From Geothrix sp. (GTDB lineage Bacteria; Acidobacteriota; Holophagae; Holophagales; Holophagaceae), in assembly GCA_030681515.1 (NCBI GenBank), contig JAUXSE010000017.1, positions 62,001 to 126,000 on the forward strand: a stretch of 64,000 nt of DNA, written 5' to 3'. The position numbers were made by a program, and so were the translations under genes. Shown here in pieces: positions 52,814 to 60,585 of this stretch. Each line of letters begins with the position of its first letter. Position 1 is the first letter of the stretch. The notes beneath the pieces are model-generated. The model was not told the origin of the DNA, ran no database searches, and saw only the letters and a program-made list of their open reading frames with translations.

Positions 52814-55800
52814 ATGACGCCCGCCCAGCCCAGCCCCATGAACCTGACCCTGGTCCCTGCCTATACGAATCAGGCCCTGTTCTCGGATCACCACCTGGAA
52901 GTCCGGTTGCCGGGGTCGCCGCAGTGGCAGCGGTGGACCCCTGCGGAACTCGAAGCCATCCACGGCCGCCTGCAGGCTTCTCTTGCCGCCTACGCCCGCC
53001 GCCGCCAACCCAAGAATGAGGAGGACACCCGGCAGTGGCTGGATGACGTGCTGGGCGTCCTCGGCTATGCCTACCACCGGGAAGCCAGCACCGCCACGGG
53101 TCGCCCCGACTATGTGCTGTTCGAGGACACCGCCACCCTCGCATCGGCGGCGCAGGCGCTCCGTTCAGGTCAGACCCAGGCCTACTACCCCCAGGCCCTC
53201 ACCGTGCTGGAGGCCAAGTATTGGGAACGCCCGCTCCAGACCCGGGATACTGAGGGCCACCGCGAGAATCCAGTCCTCCAGATCAACCGCTACCTGGATG
53301 ACGCCGCCATCCACAGTGGCAACCGCATCCAGTGGGCCGTGCTCACCAATGGGCGGCACTGGCGCCTCTACTGGCGCGGCGCGCCCAGCCGGGCGCTGAC
53401 GCACTACGAGGTGGACCTGCCCGACCTGCTGGCGCACCCCCATGTGGAAGAAGGCGATTTCGCCCGCTTCCGCTACTTCCTGCTGTTCTTCGGGCGGGAA
53501 GCCTTCCAGCGGGACAGTGGCGGGAAGACCCTGCTCGACCGCATCCGCGAAGCGTCGGAAACCTTCGCCACCGAAGTGGGCGCCTCGCTGGAGGAGGCCA
53601 TCTACGGTCCATCAGGCGCGTTCCTGCGGCTGGCGGAAGGCCTCTTCCTGGATGCCACTCAGCACGGCGCCAAGACGCTGGAGGAATCGCCTCTCCAGGA
53701 TTTGCGGGCCCTGGAGGCCAGCACGCTCGTGCTGCTCTACCGGTTGCTCTTCCTGCTCTATGCCGAGGATCGGAACCTGCTGCCCCTGGGCCATCCCGAA
53801 TACCAGGCCGCCAGCCTGTCCGCCCTGCGCGACCAGGCCACCCTGGCCGTGGATCAGGGCAAGGTGCCCACCAGCCGCCGGGCCGCCGCCTGGGGCCACC
53901 TCGAAGGCCTGTTCGACCTCGTCCATCGCGGCGATCCCGGCATGGGCCTGCCCTACTACAACGGCGGCCTCTTCGATCCCGAGCGCCACCCGCTGCTGCA
54001 ACAGCTCAAGGTGCCCGACGCCCAACTGCTGCCCGCCCTGGATGCCCTCAGCCGCGTGGTGATGGAGGGCCAGCGCCGCCGCGTGGATTTCCGCGATCTG
54101 GGCGTGCGGCAGCTCGGATCGCTGTATGAAGGCCTGCTTGAATACCGGCTCAACCTTGCGGGGGATGGCCTCTCGATCTCCCAGGACAGCCTGGTGCGGC
54201 GCACCACCGCCAGCTACTACACCCACGAAAGCCTGGTGGCCCGGCTGGTCGCCGACACGCTGACCCCCATCATGGATGACCGCCGTCAGGCTGCGGACAA
54301 GGCTCTACACGCCTGGGCTGCCACCTTCACGACGCCCGCCAAGGGCGAGGCCCAACGCCTGAAACAGGAAAAGGCGCGGGAAGAACACGAAGCCCAGGTG
54401 GTAGCGCTGCTGCTGGATCTGAAGGTGCTCGATCCCGCCATGGGTTCCGGCCACTTCCTGGTGGCCGCGCTGGATCATCTGACCGATGGGCTCATGGTCG
54501 CCCTGTCCCATCACCAGGAGGATCCGGACCTGGCCCCCTGGCTGGCCCAGCACCCCATCTTCCGCACCCTGGAAGCCCAGCGCACGGCCATCGCCCGGTC
54601 CCTGGTGGATCAGGGCCTGTCCACCGAAGCCGTGGATGCCATCCTGCCCCACCTCGACGATCTGCGCCTGCTCAAGCGCCTGGTGATGAAGCGGTGCCTG
54701 TTCGGCGTGGACCTCAATCCCATGGCCGTGGAACTGGCCAAGCTCAGCCTCTGGCTCGACAGCTTCACCCTGGGTGCGCCGCTCAGCTTTCTCGACCATC
54801 ACCTGAAGGCCGGGAACAGCCTGGTGGGCAGTTCCATGGCCGAATACACCGAGCTGCGGCGCGATGCCCAGGGTGCCACCATCGGCGCGGGCCTGTTCGC
54901 CGAAGCCCATGCCTTCGACGCCGACGAAGTGCTGGACGAGCTGCATCACCTGCTGGCGCTGTCCGACGCCACCCGGGATCAGGTGCGCCAATCCCAGGTG
55001 CTTTACCAGACCGTGGAGCGGCAGCTGGCCTTCACCCGCGTGGCGCTGGATGTGGTGGCCAGCCGCGACCTTTCCAACCAGCCCCGCCGCCTCAGCCGGG
55101 GCCGCAGCGGCGTGGTGGTGGACGATGCCGCCGTGCTGCTGGCCGACGATGGCGCCCTGAAGCGCCTGTACCAGCTCATCCACGAAGGGCGCGAACAGGT
55201 GGGGCGCCTGCCCGAGGCCCTGCGCCTGACGGCCCTGAACGTGCTGGAGGATCGCCAGCGCCACGCCTTCTTCCACTGGGATCTGGCCTTTCCCGAAGTC
55301 TTTTTGAGCAAGGGCCCCAGGGGTTTTGATGCGGTGCTCACCAATCCGCCCTGGGAACGCATCAAGCTCCAGGAGAATGAATTCTTTGGCCAGCACCGGC
55401 CCGAGCTGGCGCGGCTGCAAACCGCAGCGCAGCGCCGGGCCGCCATCCAGCGGCTGAGGTCCGAGGATCCCCCGCTGTGGGACACCTACGAATCCGCCCG
55501 CACCGTGCGCGAAGCCCTGCTGAACTACGCCCACCAGAGCGGCCGCTATCCGCTGCTGGGCCGGGGCGATACCAATCTCTACGCGCTGATGGTGGAGCGC
55601 GGCCTCTCTCTGCTGAAACCCGAAGGCCGCGCCGGGTTCGTGGTGCCTTCGGGGCTCGCCACGGATTTTGGCAATGCCCCCTTCTTCGGACAGATGGTGC
55701 GCGACCGGCGCCTGGCCTTCCTCTACGACTTCGAGAATCGACGGGGGTTGTTCCCCGGTGTCCATAGGAGCTTCAAATTCAGCCTGGTGGGTTTCACGGG

Positions 55801-56956
55801 TGCAGGTGTGAGTGCAGAACAAATTCCAGCGGCTTTCTTTCTGCATAGCGCTGCGGATCTGGAGGCACAGCGCCTGCACCTGGACCCAGCCGACTTCACC
55901 CTAATGAACCCCAACACCCTCACCTGCCCCGTGTTTCGCACGGAAGAGGACTACGCCCTGACCCGCCGCATCTACCAGCGCGTGCCCGTGCTGCGCCGCT
56001 TGGATCCGCTGGAGGATCCCTGGGGAATCCGATACCAGCGCCTGTTCGATATGACCAACGACAGCGGCCTCTTCCGCACCGTGGCGGATCTAGAGCGCTT
56101 GGGCGCCTGGCGAGAGGCTGGGCCCATGCCCATCTGGGACAGCCCGGAAGGCCGGTTCGTTCCGCTGCTCGAAGGCAAGATGGTGCAGGCCTTCGATCCC
56201 AGGGCCGCAGGCGTGCGGATCAATCCGGAGAACATTCATCGTCCGGCGATTGCAGAGGCGACGCGGCTTGAACAATGGCAGAATCCTGGGTTCTTCCCAT
56301 CGCCTCAATCCTGGGTGCCAGAGGTTGAGGTCCAATCTCGGTTGGGCCCCGCCTCTCGACCTGCCTTCATCGGGTTCAAGAGCGTCACCAGTCCGACTAA
56401 TTTGCGGACGATGATCGCCTCATGGCTCCCTGTCACAGGTGTTGGCAACAGCATGCCCATCCTGTTGAGCGATCAACCATGGATGAGCCAGCTCCTTCTC
56501 CTGGCGAACCTGAATGCACTGGTCTACGACTACGTTCTTCGTCAGAAGATCGGCGGTCAGAACCTCAATTTCTTCTACCTTGAACAGCAACCCACGCTGC
56601 CACCCGCCTTCTACGACCAGCTTCATCACGACCACCGCTGGCTGGATCTCATCGCGCCCAGGGCCCTGGAGCTGAGCTACACCTGCCACGCCCTGAAGCC
56701 CCTGGCCGAGGCCTGCGGTCACGCGGGCCCGCCCTTTGCCTGGGACCCGGCCCGCCGCCGCGTGCTGCGCGCCCAGCTCGACGCCCTGTTCTTCCTGGCC
56801 TACGGCTTCGACCAGCCCGGCGATGAAGCCGCCGTGGCCCATATGCTCGGCACCTTCCCCATCCTGAACCAGGATGATCCGGGCTACGCCGCGCTGGTCC
56901 AAGGCCACCTCCGCGCCTACCGCGCCGGGCGCATGGATGCGCGGGTAGAGGGGTGA
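52814..56956 (+). CDS. Type IIG-like restriction-methyltransferase fusion protein
   Basis: 1380 residues. The N-terminal region (about 60-190) has a nuclease pattern: 'REASTATGRPDYVLFED' and VLEAKYWERP, the D...ExK of a PD-(D/E)XK fold. The adenine-N6 methyltransferase core follows: motif I 'DPAMGSGHFLVAAL' near residue 540 and motif IV NPPW near 843, with an Eco57I-like arrangement. The C-terminal third should recognise the target; DNA for residues about 1080-1280 is lower in GC than the rest, as expected of a swapped recognition domain. One chain could both cut unmodified and methylate own DNA. A BREX-type PglX role is less likely because no other BREX genes are here. Confidence 0.85.
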   Translation: MTPAQPSPMNLTLVPAYTNQALFSDHHLEVRLPGSPQWQRWTPAELEAIHGRLQASLAAYARRRQPKNEEDTRQWLDDVLGVLGYAYHREASTATGRPDYVLFEDTATLASAAQALRSGQTQAYYPQALTVLEAKYWERPLQTRDTEGHRENPVLQINRYLDDAAIHSGNRIQWAVLTNGRHWRLYWRGAPSRALTHYEVDLPDLLAHPHVEEGDFARFRYFLLFFGREAFQRDSGGKTLLDRIREASETFATEVGASLEEAIYGPSGAFLRLAEGLFLDATQHGAKTLEESPLQDLRALEASTLVLLYRLLFLLYAEDRNLLPLGHPEYQAASLSALRDQATLAVDQGKVPTSRRAAAWGHLEGLFDLVHRGDPGMGLPYYNGGLFDPERHPLLQQLKVPDAQLLPALDALSRVVMEGQRRRVDFRDLGVRQLGSLYEGLLEYRLNLAGDGLSISQDSLVRRTTASYYTHESLVARLVADTLTPIMDDRRQAADKALHAWAATFTTPAKGEAQRLKQEKAREEHEAQVVALLLDLKVLDPAMGSGHFLVAALDHLTDGLMVALSHHQEDPDLAPWLAQHPIFRTLEAQRTAIARSLVDQGLSTEAVDAILPHLDDLRLLKRLVMKRCLFGVDLNPMAVELAKLSLWLDSFTLGAPLSFLDHHLKAGNSLVGSSMAEYTELRRDAQGATIGAGLFAEAHAFDADEVLDELHHLLALSDATRDQVRQSQVLYQTVERQLAFTRVALDVVASRDLSNQPRRLSRGRSGVVVDDAAVLLADDGALKRLYQLIHEGREQVGRLPEALRLTALNVLEDRQRHAFFHWDLAFPEVFLSKGPRGFDAVLTNPPWERIKLQENEFFGQHRPELARLQTAAQRRAAIQRLRSEDPPLWDTYESARTVREALLNYAHQSGRYPLLGRGDTNLYALMVERGLSLLKPEGRAGFVVPSGLATDFGNAPFFGQMVRDRRLAFLYDFENRRGLFPGVHRSFKFSLVGFTGAGVSAEQIPAAFFLHSAADLEAQRLHLDPADFTLMNPNTLTCPVFRTEEDYALTRRIYQRVPVLRRLDPLEDPWGIRYQRLFDMTNDSGLFRTVADLERLGAWREAGPMPIWDSPEGRFVPLLEGKMVQAFDPRAAGVRINPENIHRPAIAEATRLEQWQNPGFFPSPQSWVPEVEVQSRLGPASRPAFIGFKSVTSPTNLRTMIASWLPVTGVGNSMPILLSDQPWMSQLLLLANLNALVYDYVLRQKIGGQNLNFFYLEQQPTLPPAFYDQLHHDHRWLDLIAPRALELSYTCHALKPLAEACGHAGPPFAWDPARRRVLRAQLDALFFLAYGFDQPGDEAAVAHMLGTFPILNQDDPGYAALVQGHLRAYRAGRMDARVEG

Positions 56957-57033
56957 CCGGGGCGCGTTTACGCCACAGGGAAGGGATTTTCCACCACCAA
57001 AATCCCCTTCATCCCCTCCATCCCTGTTGAACC
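56741..57033 (+). repeat. Copy 1 of a long direct repeat at the restriction gene 3' end
   Basis: The last 216 coding bases (56741-56956) recur at 58347-58562 with 11 mismatches and no gaps. Both copies are followed some 40 bp later by a CCCCTTCATCCC-type stretch ending CCCTGTTGAA (here 57000-57031). The two copies bracket the AT-richer two-gene module. Confidence 0.88.
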
Positions 57034-57090
57034 ACTCCTTTTGCTTTTCGGCGGCTACACTTGAGCCCGACCTGTTTGGCGAGGCACATC

Positions 57091-57537
57091 ATGGAGAGGT
57101 CCGAGTTCGAGACGCTGCGAGACCTTCCCGGCAAGGTGATCCGAGGTGATATCCGTCTCACGGAAAAGAGAAATCTGAGTCCCTTGATGACTGCAGAAAA
57201 CATTCGCGTTGAGAACTCGCTCGGCTACGACCTACGATTGACAATCAAATACAACAAGGAGACCGGTACCAAAAATTTCAATGTTGATTGTTCTGGCGTT
57301 GGAGCCATCTGCCGACTGGATGTGGACGACAACCCCCACCACCCGGCTGGGCGCTCACACAAGCACTCCTTGCGAACCCCACAATGCCCCGAACGGAATC
57401 TGCCCCATGTTCAGGACCGTGCTCAGGATGCCGGGTCTTCACTATCGACTCTTTTTCAGCGGTTCTGCACCATGGCGCACATTTCCCATGAGGGCTCCCT
57501 TTTCGGCCCAGAAAACCAGGAAGGAGGTCAGCCGTGA
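57091..57537 (+). CDS. Unknown protein upstream of the DUF1828-like gene
   Basis: 148 residues from ATG 57091, without signal or membrane segment. It begins 'MERSEFETLRDLPGKVIRGD' and has a beta-rich middle ('NIRVENSLGYDLRLTIKYNK') with His and Cys in the C-terminal half ('HHPAGRSHKHSLRTPQCPER'), perhaps a metal site. No family recognised. It overlaps the next gene by four bases (GTGA), so the two are likely partners. Base composition is much lower in GC than the surrounding genes. Confidence 0.68.
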   Translation: MERSEFETLRDLPGKVIRGDIRLTEKRNLSPLMTAENIRVENSLGYDLRLTIKYNKETGTKNFNVDCSGVGAICRLDVDDNPHHPAGRSHKHSLRTPQCPERNLPHVQDRAQDAGSSLSTLFQRFCTMAHISHEGSLFGPENQEGGQP

Positions 57538-58310
57538 ACGAGGTCAAGGAAATCTCCGAGTTCCTATTGGGACATAAACTAGTACGAGAGATTACGCAGC
57601 TTGAGCGGGGCCACATCCGTCTGGAAACGGCCTTCCTCTACCCCGATGGCGGAAACATCGACCTTTTCCTTGTCAAAGAGGGTCCGCTTCTCCCCTTCCA
57701 CAAGCTCTCAGACTTTGGCAACACATCCTCTTGGCTTTTGGACCTTCAGGTAAGGCCGTGGCTCTCTGCAAAACGCAGGGGGATGCTGGAGCAAGCCCTT
57801 CAATCTCTCGATGTGAAGCAGGCGGGCGGGGCTTTGGAAATCGATCTACCCCAACTTGAGGCGCTCATGGATGGCGTCGTTCGCCTAGGGCAGGCCTGCA
57901 TTCGAATGGCGGATTTGTGCTACACAAGGCGATCTTCTTTAGTCTCTGATTTCAATGAAACGGTGGAAGACATCTTCAACGGCTCCGACCTCACCTATGA
58001 AGGAGGGGTGAGTGTCAATGGCCGATATGGGAAGGATGTGACCGTTGATTACATGGTGTTCGGCGCTCGCAAGGTTTCTCTTGTGATGGGCCTTGCCACC
58101 GGGAACTCCTCATACGCTCACACCCGGGCCAACGAGGTTTTCCGGACTTGGTATGACCTGGATGTCCCCGAGAGAACTGAAACCAGGGTCACCATTTTCG
58201 ACGACAGCAAGGACATCTATCGCGACGAGGATTTAAAGCGGATCCGGGACTTTTCGGATGTGCTTCCACTGTCGGATCGCCGTTCGATCCACGATCTTTT
58301 AGTGGCTTGA
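57534..58310 (+). CDS. DUF1828/DUF1829-like protein
   Basis: 258 residues, GTG start overlapping the preceding gene. The N-terminal part ('FLYPDGGNIDLFLVKEG', 'HKLSDFGNTSSWLLDLQ') matches my memory of DUF1828, and the C-terminal part ('SDFNETVEDIFNG', 'YGKDVTVDYMVFGARKVSLV') that of DUF1829. The conserved Asp, Glu and Lys pattern in the latter could be nuclease-like. Such proteins occur in accessory islands; the function is not established. It is bracketed by diverged repeats of the restriction gene, so it probably arrived as a module. Confidence 0.72.
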   Translation: MNEVKEISEFLLGHKLVREITQLERGHIRLETAFLYPDGGNIDLFLVKEGPLLPFHKLSDFGNTSSWLLDLQVRPWLSAKRRGMLEQALQSLDVKQAGGALEIDLPQLEALMDGVVRLGQACIRMADLCYTRRSSLVSDFNETVEDIFNGSDLTYEGGVSVNGRYGKDVTVDYMVFGARKVSLVMGLATGNSSYAHTRANEVFRTWYDLDVPERTETRVTIFDDSKDIYRDEDLKRIRDFSDVLPLSDRRSIHDLLVA

Positions 58311-58346
58311 CTGTGGATGGGCTGGATGTCCACCACAGCGTAGGAT

Positions 58347-58562
58347 TGGGACCCGGCCCGCCGTCGCATGCTGCGCGCCCAGCTCGACGCCCTGTTCTTC
58401 CTGGCCTACGGCTTCGACCAGCCCGCCGACGAAGCCGCCGTGGCCCATATGCTCGGTACCTTCCCCATCCTGCACCAGGACGATCCGGGCTACGCCGCGC
58501 TGGTCCAAGGCCACCTCCGCGCCTACCGCGCCGGGCGCATGGACGCGCAGGTAGAGGGGTAG
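58347..58562 (+). pseudogene. Displaced second copy of the restriction gene 3' end
   Basis: This 216-bp stretch keeps an intact reading frame for the last 71 residues of the 1380-residue protein ('LRAQLDALFFLAYGFDQP', ending in a stop) at about 95% identity. Many of the differences are silent third-position changes, so it evolved as a working gene end, not as junk, before being cut off. Its upstream portion is missing. It follows the DUF1828-like gene by 36 bases. Confidence 0.88.
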
Positions 58563-58599
58563 TCCCTCCCATGGGTTCAAGCCGCAAGGATTGAACCTT

Positions 58600-58685
58600 T
58601 CATCGCCAAAATCCCCTGCATCCCCTTCATCCCTGTTGAAAAACGAAAGCCTTGTGAACAGGGATGAAAGGGATGAAGGGGATGA
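58600..58685. repeat. CCCTTCATC-type inverted-repeat hairpin
   Basis: Left arm 58600-58640 and right arm 58652-58685 (CAGGGATGAAAGGGATGAAG) are near reverse complements with an 11-nt loop. A single-arm relative is at 56993-57031. It may end transcription after the displaced fragment. Confidence 0.78.
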
Positions 58686-58694
58686 AAAGCTTCT

Positions 58695-58768
58695 ACCGGT
58701 GAGGAACAGTGAGGGACGGTGAGAAAGCGCTCTGCTTGTTCACCGTTCCTCACCGTTTCTCACCGGTC
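58695..58768. repeat. GGTGAGAAAC-type inverted-repeat hairpin
   Basis: Left arm ACCGGTGAGGAACAGTGAGG (58695 on) and right arm ending CACCGTTTCTCACCGGT (58768) pair across a 13-nt loop. It is directly beside the previous hairpin but uses a different repeat unit. Confidence 0.75.
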
Positions 58769-58790
58769 CATTGAAGCCCTTGAACGGCCC

Positions 58791-58842
58791 TCGCGCCCCG
58801 GGCGCTGGAGCTGAGCCACACCTGCCACGCCCTGAAGCCGCT
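58791..58842 (+). pseudogene. Second displaced fragment of the restriction gene
   Basis: These 52 bases match 56652-56703 in the restriction gene at 48 positions (shared core CACCTGCCACGCCCTGAAGC). In the gene this piece precedes the 216-bp segment; here it comes after it. The order is therefore scrambled, so at least two events or two source copies are needed. Confidence 0.75.
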
Positions 58843-59147: not shown

Positions 59148-59175
59148 TTTGAAACTGTTTCAAACTGTTTCAAAC
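59148..59175. promoter_or_regulatory. Inverted and tandem repeats before the Fic gene
   Basis: TTTGAAAC-T-GTTTCAAA (59148-59164) is a perfect 17-bp dyad, followed by a further CTGTTTCAAAC unit. It lies within 45 bases of the Fic ATG in an AT-rich stretch, so it may be an operator for the protein's own helix-turn-helix domain. Confidence 0.5.
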
Positions 59176-59190
59176 AAACCCAGAGATCCC

Positions 59191-60585
59191 ATGCCCAGCC
59201 GGAAGGCCCCCCGCGATCTGGAAGCCGCCATTCTCGCCGCGCTGGCTGGACACGGGGAGGGTCTGACCCGCGAGGCGCTCCAGAAGGCGGTGGGCCTGGG
59301 CAAGGAGGAACCCTGGCGCTTCCGGCGCAGGCTGGTGGCGCTGGAGCGACAGAAGCGCATCTGGAAGGTGGGCCTCACTCGCGGGACGCGCTACCTGGCT
59401 GGAACGGCTGTTCCGGCGGCACCTGCGAACCTCCGGCTGACGGAGTGGACCCCCTCTCCCGAAGGCGCCCAGGCCCTGGCGCTGGTGGACCGGCCCCGGG
59501 ACCAGCGTCCGCCCTGCACGTACCAACGGCCGTTCCTTGATGCCTACCGCCCGAACGAGACCTTCTACCTGGGCGAGGCGCATCGTACGCAGCTGCACGC
59601 CCTGGGGCGCACGCCTGAAGCAGGCGCCCCGGCGGGCACTCACGCGCGGCAGATGCTGGAACGGCTGCTCATAGACCTTTCCTGGAACTCGAGCCGCCTT
59701 GAGGGGAACACCTACTCGCTGCTGGATACGGAGCGGCTCATCAGGGCTGGGGGAGCGCCGGAGGGCAAGAGCGCGCAAGAAACGCAGATGATCCTGAACC
59801 ACAAGCAGGCCATCGAGTACCTGGTGGAGGGAGCGGCGGAGCTCACGCTGTCGCCGGGAACCGTGCGCGCGCTGCACGGGATGCTTTCGGATAACCTGCT
59901 GCCTGATCCGGCGGATGAGGGGCGTCTGCGCCAGTCGCCGGTGAGCATCGGCGATAGCGTGTACGTGCCGCTCGCGGTGCCTCAACTCATCGAGGAGATC
60001 TTTGAGCAGATGCTTCTCACGGCCCAGGCGATCCGGGATCCCTTCGAGCAGTCGTTCTTCATCCTGGTCCACCTGCCCTACCTGCAGCCCTTCGCGGATG
60101 CGAACAAGCGGACCTCGCGACTGGCGGCCAACCTGCCCCTCATGAAGCGCAATCTCCAGCCCCTCTCCTTCTCGGATGTTCCCCGGGAGGCCTACCTGTC
60201 GGCCACACTCACGGTTTACGAAAACCGCAGGGTAGAGGCACTGCGGGATGTGTACCTGTGGGCCTACCAGCGGTCCAGCGAACGGTACCAGGCGATCCGG
60301 CAGTCCATGGGCGAGCCCGATCCTTTTCGGCTCCGCTACCGCGCCCAGTTGCGGGATGCGGTCCGGCAGATCGTGCGTGCGAGCCGGTCGGTTCCTGAAG
60401 TCCGGAAGGGCATCGTGGACTACTTGGAAGCCGTGGTTCCCACCGAAGATCGGATCCGGTTCCAGGCAGTGGTGTCGCAGGAATTGAGAAACCTGAACGA
60501 GGGAACCTACGCCCGCTACGCCCTGCGCCCATCCGAATTCGAGGGATGGAAACCTCTTCAGCTGGAATGGACCGCAGAGGTCTGA
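59191..60585 (+). CDS. Fic-family protein with N-terminal helix-turn-helix
   Basis: 464 residues from ATG 59191. Residues 1-75 look like a winged helix ('LAGHGEGLTREALQKAVG'). The Fic domain has the inhibitory-helix motif SSRLEGN (S/TxxxEG, near 168) and the core motif 'LPYLQPFADANKRTSRLAAN' (near 295-310). In the usual HPFxDGNGR motif the His is catalytic; here the position is Gln, and GNGR is replaced by ANKR. Fic enzymes AMPylate proteins, but this version may have a different or lost chemistry. It closes the island and is convergent with the FAH-family gene. Confidence 0.88.
   Translation: MPSRKAPRDLEAAILAALAGHGEGLTREALQKAVGLGKEEPWRFRRRLVALERQKRIWKVGLTRGTRYLAGTAVPAAPANLRLTEWTPSPEGAQALALVDRPRDQRPPCTYQRPFLDAYRPNETFYLGEAHRTQLHALGRTPEAGAPAGTHARQMLERLLIDLSWNSSRLEGNTYSLLDTERLIRAGGAPEGKSAQETQMILNHKQAIEYLVEGAAELTLSPGTVRALHGMLSDNLLPDPADEGRLRQSPVSIGDSVYVPLAVPQLIEEIFEQMLLTAQAIRDPFEQSFFILVHLPYLQPFADANKRTSRLAANLPLMKRNLQPLSFSDVPREAYLSATLTVYENRRVEALRDVYLWAYQRSSERYQAIRQSMGEPDPFRLRYRAQLRDAVRQIVRASRSVPEVRKGIVDYLEAVVPTEDRIRFQAVVSQELRNLNEGTYARYALRPSEFEGWKPLQLEWTAEV

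What the first reader, a model, noticed from the sequence alone, without database searches (positions are those of the whole stretch)
56741..58842. Scrambled copies of the restriction gene 3' end around an inserted module
Seen: the last 216 bp recur at 58347 (95%, frame intact, many changes silent), and an earlier 52-bp piece (56652-56703) recurs later, at 58791, in reversed order. They bracket an AT-rich two-gene module. Inference: repeated recombination, possibly a recognition-domain exchange system that stores alternative ends, with the module arriving by replacement of the old 3' end.
Basis: partly seen in the sequence, partly recalled or inferred. Interest (0 to 1): 0.8.

Follow-up and report, generated by a model that had tools for sequence, protein, structure and literature searches.

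The report
Restriction gene tails flanking inserted defence pair
A bacterial restriction gene has leftover tails of earlier versions of itself downstream, with a two-gene candidate phage-defence unit lodged between; this is a scar of repeated gene insertion, and the tails cannot switch DNA-recognition specificity because they lack the recognition part.

Summary
The repeats are real. One 294-bp direct repeat (RM codons 1309-stop plus 78 bp of 3' flank; 94.9% identical in the coding part, about 73% downstream) lies on both sides of a two-gene module. A 52-bp piece of a third copy (92%) lies further on. The gene is a type IIG restriction-methylase; the module matches PADLOC's uncharacterised defence pair PDC-M24A/B. 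The island, which also holds a Fic gene, sits in a gap of about 40 bp between two metabolic genes that adjoin directly in 13 congeners. Both tails lie downstream of the variable recognition domain (residues ~1121-1260, exchanged between related species), run in direct orientation, and have no tyrosine or serine recombinase on their contig. So 'stored alternative ends' is not supported, while 'repeated recombination' is. Best reading: successive one-sided insertions ('insertion with long target duplication') left the 3' ends of earlier, closely related alleles downstream. The same module subfamily occurs in only 3 of 93 class genomes and adjoins this restriction gene in all three, twice tail-to-tail: a recurrent defence pair whose direct repeats would allow clean RecA-dependent loss. 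Ordinary in mechanism; moderately interesting as a defence pairing.

The parts
52814..56956 (+). type IIG (Eco57I/DrmMI-like) restriction-methyltransferase, 1380 aa; putative nuclease motif PD...EAK near 98-135 (by eye), methylase motifs DPAMGSGHF 540-548 and NPPW 844-847, variable target-recognition region ~1121-1260, conserved tail 1281-1380
   Evidence: Pfam Eco57I 3.6e-19; PADLOC REase_MTase_IIG 1.6e-82 and DrmMI 1.7e-90; ortholog identity profile
56741..57034 (+). repeat copy R1: RM codons 1309-stop plus 78 bp of 3' flank, ending in the apex of a truncated palindrome
   Evidence: 262/294 identical to R2
57091..57537 (+). module gene 1, PDC-M24A-like, 148 aa
   Evidence: PADLOC PDLC04533 E 1.3e-11; 61-62% identical to L129 homolog
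57534..58310 (+). module gene 2, PDC-M24B (DUF1828), 258 aa, overlaps gene 1 by 4 bp
   Evidence: PADLOC PDLC04540 E 2.9e-44; Pfam DUF1828; 66% identical to L129 homolog
58311..58346 (.). 36-bp novel junction between the M24B stop and R2; contains an in-frame TAG just before R2
   Evidence: sequence; RM abuts M24B directly in L129 instead
58347..58640 (+). repeat copy R2: 3' tail of a second, diverged RM allele plus its flank
   Evidence: 94.9% in coding part, about 73% downstream
58611..58683 (.). palindrome 1 (complete here; only its left arm survives after R1)
   Evidence: inverted repeat I3, 32-bp arms, 88%; fold -43.6 kcal/mol
58695..58767 (.). palindrome 2, a dispersed repeat found at many places in the genome
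   Evidence: (I2)
58791..58842 (+). R3: 52-bp remnant (RM residues 1281-1297) of a third RM copy
   Evidence: 48/52 identical to 56652-56703
59149..60585 (+). Fic-domain gene at the right end of the island
   Evidence: Pfam Fic 8.5e-11; PADLOC PDC-S04 and SoFic

Best explanation
This is a small defence island in a Holophagaceae genome: a type IIG restriction-methylase, a PDC-M24A/B candidate defence pair and a Fic gene, inserted between two metabolic genes. The repeated 3' ends are the scar of successive insertions anchored by homology in the RM gene. DNA carrying an RM allele (or its 3' part) joined to M24AB recombined with the resident RM gene on one side and joined illegitimately on the other (or a circle integrated by single crossover). 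The result is a full RM gene followed by M24AB followed by the stranded tail of the previous allele (R2). R3 is the last trace of an earlier round. The tails are inert relics, except that the 294-bp direct repeats would let RecA loop out M24AB and leave an intact RM gene. Shown: the repeat structure, allele-like divergence, the empty site in congeners, the recurrent RM-M24 neighbourhood, the position of the tails outside the recognition domain. Inferred: the insertion route, the order of events, the defence function of M24, RecA-mediated loss.
For: Geometry: R1 is cut on its right by the module and R2 on its left, as in insertion with duplication of the target. R1/R2 differ at 11/216 coding but 21/78 flanking positions (Fisher 9e-7), and R2+R3 show 8 silent of 13 sense changes against 26-30% expected (P 0.007-0.018), so most divergence happened while the sequences were still coding. 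Empty site: FAH and the alpha/beta hydrolase gene adjoin in 13 congeners. RM homologs sit at unrelated sites: in G023 beside tRNA-Glu/Gln, with that genome's FAH/hydrolase site empty; in G031 near a tyrosine integrase. M24B of this subfamily occurs in 3 of 93 class genomes, always next to this RM. Tails exclude the recognition domain. PADLOC names both module genes. No tyrosine recombinase on the contig and no serine resolvase in the genome. Known analogue: R-M genes inserting with long, variable target duplications (PMC3031569).
Against: No strain with an intermediate state (RM plus palindrome without M24, or the second RM allele intact) was found; the nearest RM genes are only 66-68% identical. 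Illegitimate insertion, single-crossover integration of a circle, and decay of a tandem RM array predict nearly the same final structure. The silent/replacement test on R2 alone is marginal (P 0.05-0.10). The defence role of M24 rests on PADLOC candidate models, not on an assay.
Confidence: 0.66

Rival explanations
1. Decayed tandem array: the locus once held two or three RM genes in tandem (with M24 between), and deletions left one intact gene and two 3' remnants.
For: Explains why R3, an earlier part of the gene, lies downstream of R2 without any inversion; all pieces are on the same strand.
Against: Needs nearly complete loss of two 4.1-kb genes; the coding-like divergence of R2 means the copies were not recent duplicates.
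Confidence: 0.2
2. Recognition-domain exchange or storage system: alternative 3' ends are swapped into the RM gene to change specificity.
For: The recognition domain of this family has been exchanged between species (45% identity at 1121-1260 against 84% elsewhere between G031 and L129); direct repeats could recombine.
Against: The stored pieces lie wholly downstream of that domain; recombining R1 with R2 changes at most 4 residues of the conserved tail and deletes M24; no recombinase nearby.
Confidence: 0.04
3. Assembly artefact: strain variants of the RM 3' end mis-joined, since the genome is a 66-contig draft and the repeat may exceed the read length.
For: Draft assembly.
Against: A novel 36-bp junction, a truncated palindrome and R3 are not expected from a collapsed bubble; the contig is 184 kb.
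Confidence: 0.05
4. M24 and the RM form one functional defence unit, and the direct repeats maintain an on/off (excisable) state for M24.
For: RM-M24 adjacency in 3 of 3 class genomes with this M24B; both diverge to a similar degree (RM 66%, M24B 66%, M24A 61% between window and L129).
Against: G023 has the RM without M24; the L129 and G031 RM-M24 loci have no such repeats around M24; orientation of M24 relative to RM is not conserved.
Confidence: 0.05

Closest known systems
Insertion with long target duplication at R-M loci (Nobusato et al. 2000 Gene 259:99; cited in PMC3031569)
   Same: A unit associated with an R-M gene is flanked by long direct repeats of the target; loss or amplification by unequal crossing-over is possible.
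   Different: Here the duplicated target is the R-M gene's own 3' end and the cargo is a PDC-M24 pair; the two copies are already diverged (95% coding, 73% flank); no pre-insertion sister strain was available.
Homology-facilitated illegitimate recombination (PMC3240628)
   Same: One homologous crossover plus one illegitimate join would give this structure.
   Different: Donor and recipient sequences unknown; only the end product is seen.
PADLOC PDC-M24 (M24A+M24B)
   Same: Both genes match, in order, with a 4-bp overlap.
   Different: About 29-36% identical to the other M24B proteins compared in the phylum; here beside a type IIG gene and flanked by its tails; uncharacterised.
Phase-variable R-M loci such as pneumococcal tvr (PMC6265443)
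   Same: R-M gene with partial direct-repeat copies.
   Different: No recombinase at the locus and no alternative recognition domains in the copies.
Type IIG MmeI- and Eco57I-like enzymes with exchangeable recognition domains
   Same: Single polypeptide with methylase core and a C-terminal variable domain that is exchanged between lineages.
   Different: The repeated pieces are not that domain.

Membership tests
type IIG restriction-methyltransferase | nuclease, adenine methylase with motifs I and IV, and a C-terminal recognition region in one polypeptide | tested here: met
   Eco57I Pfam and PADLOC REase_MTase_IIG matches; motifs conserved in orthologs; variable region 1121-1260; the nuclease motif was only seen by eye
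type IIG restriction-methyltransferase | cleavage and methylation activity | not testable with these tools
   no assay
PDC-M24 candidate defence pair | adjacent M24A and M24B genes | tested here: met
   E 1.3e-11 and 2.9e-44, 4-bp overlap
PDC-M24 candidate defence pair | protects against phage | not testable with these tools
   candidate family only; no paper held
insertion with long target duplication | cargo flanked by long direct repeats of the target sequence | tested here: met
   294-bp direct repeat around M24AB
[quoted passage not shown]
   whole island is absent from 13 congeners, but no strain with RM and no M24 at this site was found
recombinase-driven specificity switching (tvr, hsdS inverton) | alternative recognition domains stored at the locus | tested here: not met
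   R2 = residues 1309-1380, R3 = 1281-1297, recognition region ~1121-1260
recombinase-driven specificity switching (tvr, hsdS inverton) | site-specific recombinase at the locus | tested here: not met
   no tyrosine recombinase on contig C3, no serine resolvase in the genome; neighbouring genes are metabolic or envelope genes

The most novel reading that the evidence does not exclude
This type IIG enzyme and PDC-M24AB work together as one mobile defence unit in Holophagaceae, and the RM-tail direct repeats let the module be lost or regained by homologous recombination without damaging the RM gene, so the RM tail acts as a docking site for accessory defence genes.
Probability: 0.1. Interest if true: 0.55.

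Novelty: new member of a known kind. Interest (0 to 1): 0.3.

Why it matters
It shows, in one locus, how defence genes accumulate: homology in an R-M gene's conserved tail serves as the landing point, and each round leaves the old tail behind. It also gives a testable link between a type IIG enzyme and the uncharacterised PDC-M24 pair. It does not reveal a new specificity-switching system.

Tried and rejected
Inversion of the module in place: rejected as the source of R2, because R2 follows M24B head-to-tail on the same strand and no inversion of the convergent RM/M24B arrangement gives that. 'Flipped in the window lineage': not claimed, because the window's RM is an outgroup to L129/G031 and the ancestral orientation is unknown. 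Structure prediction of M24A and M24B: pLDDT 45 and 36, unusable, so no fold search was run. Rfam: only sub-threshold chance miRNA-hairpin matches on the palindromes. M24B in plasmids, phages and IMG/VR: no match; RM in IMG/VR: none; RM in plasmids: below 40% identity in all listed hits. First genome-contig scan with the RM alone found nothing; the alignment scan found four Holophagaceae/Acidobacteria relatives plus three distant ones. RM 3'-end DNA search in 47 genus genomes: outside G000, G023 and G031 only weak chance matches. Other M24-like loci, including a distant paralog in the same genome, show no flanking duplication of this kind.

Full report
OBSERVATION. The window is part of a Holophagaceae-like draft genome (G000, contig C3; the nearest named relatives are Holophagaceae/Acidobacteria). 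The last 216 bp of the RM gene (56741-56956) recur at 58347 (205/216), and the similarity runs on through 78 bp of 3' flank, to 57034 and 58640 (262/294 overall, E=1e-109). The 52-bp piece 56652-56703 recurs at 58791-58842 (48/52). All copies are in direct orientation. Copy 2 (R2) has an open frame but no start for the full frame: a TAG lies two codons upstream.

WHAT THE GENES ARE. The RM gene is a 1380-aa type IIG enzyme (Pfam Eco57I; PADLOC REase_MTase_IIG and DrmMI). The inserted module is PADLOC's candidate defence pair PDC-M24A/PDC-M24B (1.3e-11 and 2.9e-44), the second with DUF1828. No paper in the held library names PDC-M24. A Fic gene (59149-60585) closes the island. GC is 54-55% in the module against 66% in the RM and 65% in the Fic gene.

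THE SITE. In congeners a fumarylacetoacetate-hydrolase-family gene and an alpha/beta hydrolase gene adjoin with about 40 bp between them; this holds in 13 of the loci examined. In the window the whole RM-M24-Fic island lies in that gap. RM homologs in other genomes of the group sit elsewhere: G023 beside tRNA-Glu/Gln, with its own hydrolase site empty (L036); G031 close to a tyrosine integrase. The island genes are therefore mobile on an evolutionary scale.

WHERE THE TAILS LIE IN THE PROTEIN. Among four orthologs, G031 and L129 are 84% identical over residues 1-1120, 45% over 1121-1260 and 78% over 1261-1380; G023 and L129 behave the same way, while G031 and G023 share the region (81%). Residues ~1121-1260 are thus most likely the exchangeable recognition domain. 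R2 covers 1309-1380 and R3 covers 1281-1297, both beyond it. Swapping R1 for R2 would alter four residues of the conserved tail and no part of the recognition domain. No tyrosine recombinase was found on contig C3 and no serine resolvase in the genome, and the neighbouring genes are not recombinases. A stored-specificity system is not supported.

HOW THE COPIES DIVERGED. R1 and R2 differ at 11 of 216 coding positions and about 21 of 78 flanking positions (Fisher P 9e-7). R2 and R3 together show 8 silent and 5 replacement codon changes, where 26-30% silent would be expected without selection (P 0.007-0.018); R2 alone is marginal (P 0.05-0.10). The simplest reading is that R1, R2 and R3 descend from separate alleles that diverged mostly while functional, and that R2 and R3 were broken later.

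RECURRENT PAIRING. A relative of the module lies beside the RM gene in two other genomes. In L129 (ADurb.Bin340; by coordinates the same locus as G432:C64) the order is RM> <M24B <M24A with stop codons overlapping by 4 bp. In G031 a 46-aa 3' remnant of M24B abuts the RM stop in the same tail-to-tail way. M24B of this subfamily was found in 3 of 93 genomes of the class, always beside this RM; G023 has the RM without it. RM and M24 diverge to a similar degree between the window and L129 (66% and 61-66%). In L129 M24A has an in-frame TAG near its start. Orientation differs between the window and the other two; which is ancestral cannot be told.

MECHANISM. R1 is truncated on its right inside the apex of a palindrome that is complete after R2, and R2 is truncated on its left 36 bp after M24B. 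A full gene, a cargo and a truncated second 3' end is the product expected from one-sided homologous insertion, or from single-crossover integration of a circle carrying the RM tail and M24AB. R-M genes are reported to insert with long and variable target duplications (PMC3031569), and joining by homology on one side and illegitimately on the other is documented (PMC3240628, abstract). R3, lying after R2 although it comes from an earlier part of the gene, needs a third copy, so at least two rounds (or a decayed tandem array). The breakpoint in a strong hairpin suggests, but does not show, that the palindrome helped cause the break. A consequence that can be tested is RecA-dependent loss of M24AB with an intact RM gene left behind.

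VERDICT. Observation confirmed with corrections; interpretation partly supported. Real and informative, but mechanistically ordinary: a scar of repeated insertion at an R-M gene, and a recurrent type IIG plus PDC-M24 pairing worth a bench test.

Noticed in passing
58690-58772, and many other places in the genome such as G000:C1:74333-74497: A dispersed palindromic repeat with heptad-like arms (ACCGGTGAGGAACRGTGAGRRACGGTGAG ... CTCACCGTTCCTCACCGTTTCTCACCGGT) and a loop of very variable length; at least ten loci in this genome, no Rfam family above threshold.
   Followed up: partly
L129:5513-5959: M24A homolog in ADurb.Bin340 carries an in-frame TAG at about codon 16, so it is either started downstream at GTG or broken.
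   Followed up: no
L046:11565-12895: In G031 a different Fic-like gene ends just before the M24B remnant, so a Fic gene is again near this RM, as in the window.
   Followed up: no
RM residues 1121-1260 (window 56174-56593): The probable recognition domain of this type IIG family has been exchanged between lineages (45% identity inside, 84% outside, G031 vs L129); G031 and G023 probably share a specificity.
   Followed up: partly
L088:8610-9823 (G000:C1): A second, distant DUF1828-type gene pair in the same genome, without flanking repeats.
   Followed up: partly
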